Origin: Crenothrix polyspora
GTDB taxonomy: Bacteria; Pseudomonadota; Gammaproteobacteria; Methylococcales; Methylomonadaceae
Direction of reading: 5' to 3'
Length of the DNA: 41,300 nucleotides
NCBI GenBank assembly: GCA_945877505.1
Contig: CAMDWT010000015.1
Location: 1 to 41,300, forward strand
The position numbers were made by a program, and so were the translations under genes. Of this stretch, positions 15,779 to 33,840 are shown piece after piece (within the stretch, counting starts at the first letter, position 1; the number at the start of each line of letters is the position of its first letter). Below the pieces are notes generated by a model, which saw nothing but the letters and a program-made list of their open reading frames with translations, did no database searches and was not told the origin of the DNA.

Positions 15779-15906
15779 GTTGTGGGAATGCAACTGTCTT
15801 TTTTTTGACACTTTTTTTGGATATTACCAACAAATTATTTACTTGTTTTGCTGCATATTCAGGAGGAATATTATCAACACCCATTAATAATTTAGGTCGT
15901 CAATTT
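15779..15906 (+). promoter_or_regulatory. Conserved 5' element of small-protein gene, copy 1
   Basis: GTTG-N8-CAAC (15779-15794), then 66 nt, then the perfect Shine-Dalgarno-like AGGAGGA (15861-15867), then 39 nt, then ATG 15907. Copy 2 (33713-33840, minus) has the same elements at exactly the same distances. The last 28 nt before the purine-rich motif agree at 22 positions, including CTTGTTTTG and TATTC. The purine-rich motif is too far from the ATG to act as its ribosome site, so a leader RNA or an upstream mini-ORF is possible. Confidence 0.55.
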
Positions 15907-16038
15907 ATGAAAATTATAAAATCTTTAATTTTATTTGCGTCTCTGTTTGCCATTGCTGGTGCAGCCTTTTTTCAATTGTTAGTTTTACTCGGTAACAAGC
16001 TAACTTTTAAGCAGAGCTATAGACATCAAGTGCTTTGA
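15907..16038 (+). CDS. Small single-span membrane protein, 43 aa, copy 1
   Basis: I do not recognise the family. The 43 residues start MKIIKSLILFASLFAIAGAA, form one hydrophobic span (about 4-28), and end in a polar basic tail KQSYRHQVL. A second protein of the same length at 33581-33712 (minus) matches at 18 of 43 positions, including LF-IAGAA, QL, N30, KQ, RH and the final Leu. The frame is open upstream to a TTG at 15805, but copy 2 has stops there, so I chose ATG 15907. It could be a membrane-inserted regulator, a toxin-like peptide or a complex subunit. It converges on fae across a shared hairpin. It is real mainly because it has a paralogue. Confidence 0.6.
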   Translation: MKIIKSLILFASLFAIAGAAFFQLLVLLGNKLTFKQSYRHQVL

Positions 16039-16112: not shown

Positions 16113-16138
16113 AAAAAAATACCTTAGCAAGGCTAAGG
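16113..16138 (-). terminator. Intrinsic terminator of fae
   Basis: On the minus strand CCTTAGC-CTT-GCTAAGG forms a perfect 7-bp stem (16122-16138) followed by a run of seven T (16113-16119), 22 nt after the fae stop. On the plus strand it is followed by CATTTTGGG, so it may also stop the convergent small-protein transcript, less efficiently. Confidence 0.88.
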
Positions 16139-29219: not shown

Positions 29220-30617
29220 GTGAATCCTATTAGGAAAGAATTTCAGTACGGCGATAAACTCGTTAGTCTAGAAACTGGTGAAATTGCACGTCAAGCTGAC
29301 GGCGCAGTTATTATCGATGTTGATGGTACCTCCTTACTGGTTACTGTCGTTGGTAAAAAAGAAGCGGCTGGTGGAGATTTTTTTCCATTAACGGTCAATT
29401 ATCAAGAAAAAGCCTATGCAGCCGGAAAAATCCCCGGTGGCTTCTTTAAAAGAGAAGGGCGTCCTAGCGAAAAAGAGACTTTAACATCAAGACTCATTGA
29501 TAGACCTATACGCCCTCTATTTCCTGAAGGCTATACCAACGAAGTTCAAATTATTGCCACAGTCATCTCACTGAATCCAGACGTTGATCCAGAAATTCCT
29601 GCGTTGTTAGGTGCATCAGCTGCATTAGCCGTTTCAGGCTTGCCTTTCAATGGCCCTATCGGTGCCGCTTGTGTGGGTTACAAAGACGGTGCTTATTTAA
29701 TAAATCCATCGCCAAGTGCATTAAAAGAGTCAGAGTTAACGCTCGTTGTTGCTGGTACAGCGCATGCCGTCTTAATGGTTGAATCTGAAGCGATTGGCCT
29801 ATCAGAAGAAATAATGCTGGGTGCAGTATTATTTGGTCACGAACAAATGCAAATCGCCATCAATGCGATCAATGAATTTGCTAATGAGGCAGGTGCGGGT
29901 GTTGTTGAGTGGGTCGCTCCAGAAGCTAATAATGAATTGATTAGATTAGTGACCGCTGAAGTTGAAGCTGGCATTAAAGAGGCTTATACCATCGCTGAAA
30001 AATTAGTACGCCAAGAACACCTTAAAGGTATTCGTACTGCGGTTGTTGAAAAGTTATCGATCAATTATGCCGAAAAAGATATTCGAGGCATTATTGAACA
30101 TCTAGAATATAGCATCGTACGTAACGCCATTCTTAATGAAGGTAAGCGTATTGATGGTCGAGCCCTAGATAAAATTAGACCCATTAGCATTAGAACAGGT
30201 GTTTTACCAAGAACGCATGGTTCTGCTTTGTTTACGCGTGGTGAAACTCAAGCCTTAGTGGTGGCTACATTGGGTACTGCTCGTGATGCACAAATTATTG
30301 ATGCGTTGGCCGGTGAATATAAAGAACCCTTCATGTTGCATTACAATTTCCCTCCGTATAGTGTTGGAGAGACTGGTTTTGTTGGTTCTCCAAAACGACG
30401 TGAAATTGGTCATGGCCGATTAGCAAAACGTGGCGTAGCCGCTGTTCTACCTAATATGGATGAATTTCCATATACGATTCGTGTGGTTTCTGAAATCACT
30501 GAGTCAAATGGCTCAAGCTCTATGGCTTCAGTCTGTGGTAGTAGTTTGGCGTTAATGGATGCCGGTGTGCCTATTAAATCACCTGTTGCGGGTATCGCAA
30601 TGGGCTTGATTAAATAA
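29220..30617 (+). CDS. pnp: Polynucleotide phosphorylase, N-terminal part, ended by in-frame TAA
   Basis: 3'-5' phosphorolytic exoribonuclease of the RNA degradosome. GTG 29220 (AAAGGA upstream) starts the usual [11 protein letters not shown] sequence, and 465 residues run through the first RNase PH core ([31 protein letters not shown]), the alpha-helical linker, and most of the second core ([30 protein letters not shown]). The frame then meets TAA 30615-30617, where relatives read ...GL(V/I)KEGDN. Sequence identity with the family resumes at once downstream in the same frame. The catalytic Asp pair and the KH and S1 domains are therefore cut off. It may be a recent nonsense mutation, a base-call error or a read-through codon. 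Confidence 0.9.
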
Positions 30618-30647
30618 GGCGACAACTTTGCAGTTTTATCTGACATT

Positions 30648-31295
30648 ATGGGTGATGAAGATCACTTAGGTGATATGGATTTCAAAGTAGCAGGATCAGT
30701 AGACGGTATTACGGCACTGCAAATGGATATCAAGATTGATGGCATTACGTCAGAAATCATGAAGACTGCTTTGGAACAAGCTAAGCACGGTCGTTTACAT
30801 ATCCTAGGCGAAATGAACAAAGCCTTGGCGAGTACACGTGACGAAATGTCTGATTTTGCGCCACGCATTATTACTTTCAAAATTGATCCTAGTAAAATTC
30901 GTGAAGTTATTGGTAAGGGCGGCGCTACTATTCGCAGCATTACTGAACAAACCGGTGCCAGTGTTGATTTGACTGATGACGGCATTGTTAAAGTAGCTTC
31001 TGTTGATAAAGCAGCGGGTGAAGAAGCTAGACGTCTGATTGAAGAAATTACCGCTGAAGTTGAAGTGGGTAAAATTTACGAAGGTAAAGTCGCTCGATTA
31101 ATGGATTTTGGTGCTTTCGTAACGATTCTTCCTGGTAAAGACGGTTTAGTTCATATCTCACAAATTTCTGATGAACATGTTGATAAAGTCAGCGACCGCT
31201 TAAATGAAGGCGATATTGTACGAGTAAAAGTACTTGAAATTGACCGTCAGGGTAGAGTTAGACTCAGTATCAAAGAAGTTGAAAAAGAAGACTAG
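30648..31295 (+). CDS. pnp: Polynucleotide phosphorylase, C-terminal part (catalytic Asp motif, KH, S1)
   Basis: In-frame continuation of pnp after the TAA. Without a stop the protein would be 691 residues, normal for PNPase. From ATG 30648 the 215 residues begin [16 protein letters not shown], holding the two catalytic aspartates of the second RNase PH core, followed by the rest of that core, a KH domain ([20 protein letters not shown], about 85-140) and an S1 domain ([19 protein letters not shown], to the end). The ATG has no Shine-Dalgarno, so independent translation is doubtful. The region shows no other damage, so the lesion is recent, artefactual or tolerated. Confidence 0.85.
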
Positions 31296-33490: not shown

Positions 33491-33523
33491 CCAAAAATAG
33501 CCGCTTAAAGTGGCTATTTTTGG
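33491..33523. terminator. Bidirectional terminator between the PuuD-like gene and the small-protein gene
   Basis: A perfect 12-bp inverted repeat CCAAAAATAGCC / GGCTATTTTTGG around a 9-nt loop, with A and T runs on both sides. It serves the convergent ends at 33375 (plus) and 33581 (minus). Confidence 0.75.
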
Positions 33524-33580: not shown

Positions 33581-33712
33581 TTAGAGTATTTTGTGCCTGA
33601 AGTCCTGCTTAATAATAACTTGGTTTTTTACTATCTCGATAAGTTGAAGAAGTGCCGCTCCAGCTATGACAAATAAGGTGGCTAATGCAATAAATAGGGT
33701 CAAAGTTTTCAT
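33581..33712 (-). CDS. Small single-span membrane protein, 43 aa, copy 2
   Basis: I do not recognise the family. It is a paralogue of the protein at 15907-16038, with the same length, one hydrophobic span (MKTLTLFIALATLFVIAGAA onward), and the tail KQDFRHKIL. Eighteen of 43 residues are identical (M1, K2, A11, L13, F14, I16 to A20, Q23, L24, N30, K35, Q36, R39, H40, L43). The minus-strand ATG 33712 has only a weak AAGAAGA upstream. The gene ends on the bidirectional terminator. The conservation of the polar C-terminal tail, with the loop residues free to vary, argues for a translated protein and a partner that reads the tail. Confidence 0.6.
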   Translation of the reverse strand: MKTLTLFIALATLFVIAGAALLQLIEIVKNQVIIKQDFRHKIL

Positions 33713-33840
33713 AAATTATCTTCTTAAAGTTATTTTATTTACAGTCAATAATCCTCTTGAATAACCGTCAAAACAAGAAAATTATTAATTTGATAACGTC
33801 AGTTATTTATTGGAAAAAACGGTCGTTGTATATATCCAAC
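33713..33840 (-). promoter_or_regulatory. Conserved 5' element of small-protein gene, copy 2
   Basis: On the minus strand: GTTG-N8-CAAC (33840-33825), 66 nt, AAGAGGA (33758-33752), 39 nt, ATG 33712. Spacing is identical to copy 1, with no net insertion or deletion. In the protein frame stops occur upstream of the ATG, so this part is not a coding extension. Confidence 0.55.

What the first reader, a model, noticed from the sequence alone, without database searches (positions are those of the whole stretch)
15779..16038. Unrecognised 43-aa membrane protein family, copy 1, with a long conserved leader
The gene at 15907-16038 has a paralogue at 33581-33712 on the other strand. Both proteins are exactly 43 residues and agree at 18 positions, with the conserved residues concentrated in LF-IAGAA and in the polar tail KQ--RH--L. 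The 5' regions are also colinear: GTTG-N8-CAAC, 66 nt, ARGAGGA, 39 nt, ATG, with no net indel. A strong ribosome-binding-like motif 39 nt from the ATG cannot serve that ATG directly, so the leader may be a regulatory RNA, a standby site or a mini-ORF. Two scattered copies with conserved regulation suggest a defined, undescribed small-protein system.
Basis: seen in the sequence. Interest (0 to 1): 0.78.

Follow-up and report, generated by a model that had tools for sequence, protein, structure and literature searches.

The report
Methanotroph microprotein with phase-locked promoter
Methylobacter and related methane-eating bacteria carry an undescribed tiny membrane protein whose gene seems to be preceded not by a regulatory RNA but by a dedicated promoter with a distant protein-binding site kept on one face of the DNA helix.

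Summary
Two 43-codon genes (15907-16038 +; 33581-33712 -) encode related single-helix proteins (19 of 43 identical) with colinear leaders. The family is real: found in 21 of 23 same-genus genomes and in 6 genera of one family; no credible match elsewhere in the order and class samples. No Pfam, NCBIfam, PHROGs, PADLOC or PDB family matches credibly.

The leader reading is not supported. Across 45 loci the leader is a GTTG-N8-CAAC palindrome, then CTTG and a -10-like GAWTAT (42 of 45) at a 17-nt spacer (44 of 45), then 34-40 nt to ATG. The "RBS" is spacer and -10 sequence. The palindrome-to-promoter gap takes only three values, 46-48, 59-60 and 69-71 bp, about one helical turn apart, with 5 switches on the best tree. 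That suggests an upstream activator contacting RNA polymerase from one face of the DNA. In 35 same-genus genomes a model of this promoter gives 37 strong hits: 33 at this gene, 4 at a different, 85-aa-type membrane-protein gene.

Best reading: a conditionally expressed membrane microprotein that binds a larger membrane partner. Activator and partner are unknown; CRP/FNR looks unlikely.

The parts
15779..15794 (+). Copy 1: palindrome GTTG-N8-CAAC, predicted binding site of a dimeric activator (centre about -91.5 from the inferred start site)
15843..15848 (+). Copy 1: -35 element TTGTTT (preceded by an invariant C)
15866..15871 (+).
15907..16038 (+). Copy 1: 43-aa single-helix protein, predicted to lie in the membrane
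16122..16138 (+). Copy 1: terminator-like hairpin in the gap to the convergent fae gene (weak: 1 found, 0.7 expected by chance)
33825..33840 (-). Copy 2: palindrome GTTG-N8-CAAC
33771..33776 (-). Copy 2: -35 element TTGTTT
33748..33753 (-). Copy 2: -10 element GATTAT
33581..33712 (-). Copy 2: 43-aa single-helix protein, predicted to lie in the membrane
33491..33523 (-). Copy 2: strong hairpin with A- and U-rich arms, possible terminator (stretch z -3.74; the consensus terminator scan found none here)

Best explanation
Each copy is a free-standing transcription unit: palindromic activator site, weak sigma70-type promoter, short 5' UTR, a 41-58 aa membrane protein. [quoted passage not shown] promoter identity and activation inferred). 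The product is a single helix with a conserved AGAAxxQ-type small-residue face and a polar, basic tail (predicted helix and conservation shown; membrane insertion inferred). It most likely acts by packing against a larger inner-membrane protein and adjusting its activity or stability under the inducing condition (inferred by analogy with known small membrane proteins).
For: In 45 of 45 loci CTTG is followed by a -10-like hexamer (GATTAT 33, GAATAT 9, GATGAT 2, GAACAT 1); the spacer is 17 nt in 44 and 18 nt in L020. The palindrome gap falls only at 46-48 (18 loci), 59-60 (11) and 69-71 (16) in a scanned range of 40-89, with 5 class changes on the best tree, built without that region. Of the 10 loci with a changed palindrome, 4 changed on both sides, 3 of them symmetrically to GTGG/CCAC. 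The combined pattern gives 37 matches in 251 genomes and 0 for the reversed control; 34 lie at this gene. A sequence-only promoter model (14 loci) gives 37 hits at E below 1e-4 in 35 genomes, none at a gene outside the two families; 6 distinct family loci not in the earlier set (L184, L186, L200, L203, L211, L212) have gaps 47, 47, 48, 60, 48, 48, again in the classes. dN/dS of the two copies is 0.22. AlphaFold gives one helix, residues 2-42, mean pLDDT 95 in residues 11-20.
Against: No start-site, expression or binding data. The hexamers are poor sigma70 matches (TTGTTT 3 of 6, GATTAT 4 of 6) and the consensus scans do not list them. 39 of 45 loci keep some G-rich run before the -10 (32 with an SD-like core), which a plain promoter does not explain. 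In 10 of 45 loci the palindrome departs from GTTG/CAAC by one or two bases; in L025 and L026 its register is ambiguous; with stricter scoring some degenerate loci give other best positions. Starred tree branches alone force only 3 changes for each of the two longer-gap classes. No activator gene was identified. The partner is conjecture; neighbouring genes differ between clades.
Confidence: 0.66

Rival explanations
1. The leader is a regulatory RNA (riboswitch, thermosensor or standby site) and ARGAGGA is a distal ribosome-landing site.
For: The SD-like core is present in 32 of 45 loci and some G-rich run in 39; many genes have only a weak SD (3-4 bases) near the ATG; the palindrome could form a small hairpin, and half-site covariation (GTGG/CCAC) would also suit an RNA stem.
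Against: Leaders of the two window copies fold no better than shuffles (z -0.62, -1.34); no Rfam match there; 6 of 45 loci have no G-rich run yet keep CTTG and the -10-like hexamer; gap lengths differ by about whole helical turns.
Confidence: 0.1
2. The proteins are type I toxins: small hydrophobic peptides kept silent by an antisense RNA.
For: Small size, one hydrophobic helix, basic tail, free-standing loci, occasional duplication.
Against: The helix face is strongly conserved, which I recall as unusual for such toxins; the promoter looks activator-type; no toxin family matched credibly (best related name: entericidin antitoxin NF007319 at E 0.022 in 6 of 33 members). An antisense gene was not searched for beyond consensus scans.
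Confidence: 0.1
3. The small protein is incidental; the loci are small-RNA genes whose promoter is what is conserved.
For: The promoter is the most recognisable part and a version of it lies before a different ORF family in 4 genomes.
Against: The ORF is intact in all 45 loci, dN/dS is 0-0.46 among the close relatives listed, and the protein profile alone finds the family at E down to 2e-26.
Confidence: 0.07
4. The palindrome is a repressor site or an architectural protein site rather than an activator site.
For: No activator gene is known; far-upstream sites can also serve looping repressors (recalled).
Against: A single site about 91-113 bp upstream, the weak promoter hexamers and the helical phasing suit activation better; a looping repressor would need a second site near the promoter, and none is apparent by eye in the 14-locus alignment.
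Confidence: 0.15

Closest known systems
Class I activator-dependent sigma70 promoters (CRP as the model case)
   Same: One palindromic site upstream of a weak promoter at positions about one helical turn apart; CRP acts from near -61.5, -72.5, -82.5 or -92.5 on the same face as RNA polymerase (one passage of PMC5352689 seen).
   Different: Inferred sites here are at about -91, -103 and -113, the half-site is GTTG/CAAC, not TGTGA/TCACA (recalled), and the activator is unknown.
Single-helix regulatory microproteins of E. coli (AcrZ, MgtS, CydX, KdpF; recalled)
   Same: Under 60 aa, one transmembrane helix, often conditionally expressed (recalled; the abstract start of PMC11539335, seen in the listing, calls well-studied small membrane proteins regulators).
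   Different: No credible match to NCBIfam, Pfam or PDB; not next to a constant candidate partner gene; found only in one methanotroph family in the samples searched.
Type I toxins (TisB, Hok, Ldr; recalled)
   Same: Small hydrophobic membrane peptide, free-standing gene.
   Different: Conserved helix face, activator-type promoter; antisense gene not searched for.

Membership tests
Class I activator-dependent sigma70 promoter | -35 and -10 elements 16-18 nt apart at fixed spacing | tested here: met
   17 nt in 44 of 45 loci, 18 nt in L020; the hexamers themselves match the consensus poorly
Class I activator-dependent sigma70 promoter | Upstream palindrome on a fixed helical face | tested here: met
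   45 of 45 gaps in 46-48, 59-60 or 69-71 under a relaxed palindrome score; 6 distinct further loci agree
Class I activator-dependent sigma70 promoter | Expression depends on the activator site | not testable with these tools
   needs reporter or binding assays
CRP/FNR superfamily as the activator | A CRP/FNR-type HTH protein in every genome that has the gene and site | tested here: not met
   Of 21 genomes (13 with the gene, 8 without) 20 have a PF13545 match over the cut-off; G142 (99% complete, about 290 contigs, has gene and site) has only one below it (E 2.9e-4). A gap in that assembly is not excluded
Known protein family (Pfam, NCBIfam, PHROGs, PADLOC, PDB) | Profile match above cut-off | tested here: not met
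   No credible match among 33 members: best Pfam E 0.0031 (DUF6804, 3 members) and 0.0065 (DUF5562, 2 members), NCBIfam 0.022; PHROGs and PADLOC none at 0.01; PDB 0.91
Structured leader RNA / riboswitch | Stable fold or Rfam match | tested here: not met
   Rfam: only a tRNA in the window; fold z -0.62 and -1.34
Type I toxin-antitoxin | Antisense RNA gene overlapping the toxin mRNA | not tested
   only consensus promoter scans were run; these are at chance level
Single-helix membrane microprotein | One hydrophobic helix spanning a membrane, under about 60 aa | tested here: met
   helix 2-42 by AlphaFold, 41-58 aa; membrane insertion itself inferred from hydrophobicity

The most novel reading that the evidence does not exclude
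A dedicated, non-CRP/FNR activator of methanotrophs runs a very small regulon of membrane microproteins (this family in most same-genus genomes, plus an 85-aa-type membrane protein with a version of the same promoter in 4 genomes), giving a condition-specific subunit to a membrane complex of methane oxidation or respiration.
Probability: 0.12. Interest if true: 0.78.

Novelty: new member of a known kind. Interest (0 to 1): 0.5.

Why it matters
It adds an undescribed microprotein family to nearly all sampled Methylobacter-type genomes, methane consumers of lakes and wetlands (ecology recalled). It also offers a natural experiment on promoter geometry: on the best tree five switches between site positions, each by about whole helical turns. 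It turns a vague 'conserved leader' into testable predictions (start site, operator, 5-bp insertion) and gives a DNA bait for finding the activator.

Tried and rejected
Leader as RNA: folding z-scores and Rfam gave nothing. Leader peptide: no ORF follows ARGAGGA consistently (by eye). Operon partner: neighbours are clade-specific (a glk-like gene at L095/L099/L110/L112, a malQ-like gene at L097/L098/L106/L107/L111, an rnr-like gene at L096/L104/L105/L108, a tsaB-like gene at L086/L087/L089/L047/L048; names recalled from the sequences), so no constant partner gene. CRP/FNR as activator: spoken against by G142. Wider regulon through the palindrome alone: TGTTGY-N6-RCAAC is rarer in the genome than its reversed control (5 against 14); its other sites lie before a porin-like gene beside glnA, or inside coding sequence. 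LexA and sigma54 were considered from memory only; the -35/-10 form argues against sigma54. The only class-wide hit besides the window's genome at E 0.001 (G328) is the signal peptide of a cytochrome-c-like protein, probably a chance likeness. Two architecture matches (G034, G077) fall where no family ORF follows and look like chance in coding DNA. Weak promoter-model candidates L210, L213, L214 and L217 lack the architecture. Literature searches with 'Methylobacter' or 'methanotroph' and small-protein or promoter terms listed nothing on this family (listings only). No match in the plasmid or phage collections at E 0.1.

Full report
Observation. The two ORFs lie at 15907-16038 (+) and 33581-33712 (-), both 43 codons, 19 of 43 residues identical. 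Leaders are colinear as stated. A pattern for the promoter part gives 2 matches in the window against 0.01 expected. The family profile finds no third copy in the assembly.

Family. A profile of 33 relatives finds the gene in 21 of 23 same-genus genomes and, at E below 1e-15, in 17 further genomes of the same family: 38 of 251 order-wide, over 6 genera. Four more genomes (E 6e-4 to 8e-3) were set aside as partial matches without being opened. In a class sample of 369 genomes, at E 0.001, only the window's genome and one false hit rang. Named records are Methylobacter or uncultured Methylococcaceae/Methylococcales. No Pfam, NCBIfam, PHROGs, PADLOC or PDB match is credible. Proteins are 41-58 aa: MK, a hydrophobic stretch resembling ASLFAIAGAAFFQL, and a polar tail often with NRH. 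AlphaFold predicts one helix over residues 2-42. dN/dS is 0.22 for the two copies (dS 1.89, near saturation) and 0-0.46 for the close relatives listed. The median over 152 pairs with dS 0.1-1.2 is 0.34, but some distant pairs reach 1.65, so values on 43-46 codons are rough. On the tree the two window copies are sisters (93/94 support, not starred), so a duplication in this lineage is likely but not secure.

What the leader is. I collected 45 distinct loci: 35 after removing 8 duplicates, plus 10. All have CTTG, then a -10-like hexamer 17 nt after the -35 hexamer (18 in L020): GATTAT 33, GAATAT 9, GATGAT 2, GAACAT 1; then 34-40 nt to the start codon. The SD-like core inside the spacer is present in 32 of 45; of the 13 without it, 7 keep some G-rich run and 6 (L006, L025-L027, L101, L102) do not. 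So the most constant thing is the -35/-10 pair, though the frequent G-rich run is not fully explained by a plain promoter. Some genes have a good SD next to their start (L047, L049: GGAGG at 7 nt); many have only 3-4 matching bases.

The palindrome. GTTG-N8-CAAC is exact in 35 of 45 loci; the other 10 differ by one or two bases, and three of them (L046, L047, L049) change both half-sites symmetrically to GTGG/CCAC. Scanning gaps of 40-89 with a relaxed score, the best palindrome lies 46-48 bp from the -35 in 18 loci, 59-60 in 11 and 69-71 in 16, and nowhere else. With stricter GTTG/CAAC scoring a few degenerate loci gave other best positions (gap 78 or 100), and L020 gave 61 or 39 in the wrong register. 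A tree built from promoter plus gene, without the palindrome and gap, needs 5 changes between the three classes; well-supported (starred) branches alone force 3 changes each for the 59-60 and 69-71 classes. The steps are about 9-12 or about 22 bp, that is, about one or two turns. If each change could end at any phase, landing within 1 bp of a whole turn has a chance of about 0.29, so five in a row is about 0.002 and three about 0.02 (my arithmetic; it ignores short indels and tree uncertainty). Assuming a start 7 nt after the -10, the site centres are near -91, -103 and -113. CRP acts from -61.5, -72.5, -82.5 or -92.5 on the same helix face as RNA polymerase (PMC5352689, one passage seen).

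Specificity and prediction. The combined pattern matched 37 times in 251 genomes, against 0 for the reversed control: 34 at the family gene, 2 (G034, G077) with no family ORF behind them, 1 before an 85-aa membrane protein in G242. A sequence-only model of the promoter (14 loci) was searched in 35 same-genus genomes. It reaches E below 1e-4 in 29 of them with 37 hits (E up to 8.3e-5; the next starts at 0.0037). Reading all of these (29 loci, the other 8), 33 lie at the family gene and 4 at the 85-aa-type gene. Six distinct family loci that were not in the earlier set (L184, L186, L200, L203, L211, L212) have gaps of 47, 47, 48, 60, 48 and 48, again within the classes.

The second gene. In G645, G148 and G648 the orthologues of the 85-aa gene keep the palindrome (CCAC in one) and the CTTG, but their -10 has drifted (CACTAT), so only G242 fits the strict pattern. 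The other 26 loci of this protein family brought in have no match to the pattern (16 of them also read by eye). Some match to the protein exists in 28 of 35 same-genus genomes, weak ones included. This looks like a second gene that acquired the same control in one clade.

Mechanism. Shown: a protein-coding family with dN/dS below 1 in close comparisons, and a promoter-like module with a phase-locked palindrome. Inferred: that the module is a promoter, that a dimeric activator works through RNA polymerase, and that the protein modulates a membrane partner. A CRP/FNR protein would fit the geometry, but G142 has gene and site and only a sub-threshold HTH_Crp_2 match, so another family is likelier unless the assembly lacks it. 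Neighbour genes differ by clade, as expected of a self-contained unit. Copy 2 is followed by a strong hairpin that the terminator scan did not list.

Verdict. A real, undescribed microprotein family; the leader is best read as a promoter with an upstream activator site, not as an RNA device.

Noticed in passing
window 29220-31295 (+): The PNPase gene is interrupted by one in-frame TAA at 30615-30617, near the second RNase PH C-terminal domain; a genuine lesion or an assembly error.
   Followed up: partly
L148 / L151 (G242:C189), L152-L154: An 85-aa (74-aa in L153 and L154) single-helix-like protein has a palindrome and promoter layout like that of the 43-aa family; its other relatives fetched do not match. 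The protein has no Pfam or NCBIfam match.
   Followed up: partly
L101, L102 (G108) and L211 (G647): Divergent family members (41, 41 and 57 aa), recognisable by promoter architecture as much as by protein sequence.
   Followed up: partly
L114 position 1501: In the window's genome a palindrome AGTGTTGCTCTATAACAACACT lies between divergent glnA-like and porin-like genes, about 35-40 nt before the porin-like start.
   Followed up: no
L109 (G328:C24): The microprotein's first 20 residues resemble the signal peptide of a cytochrome-c-like protein; probably chance.
   Followed up: partly
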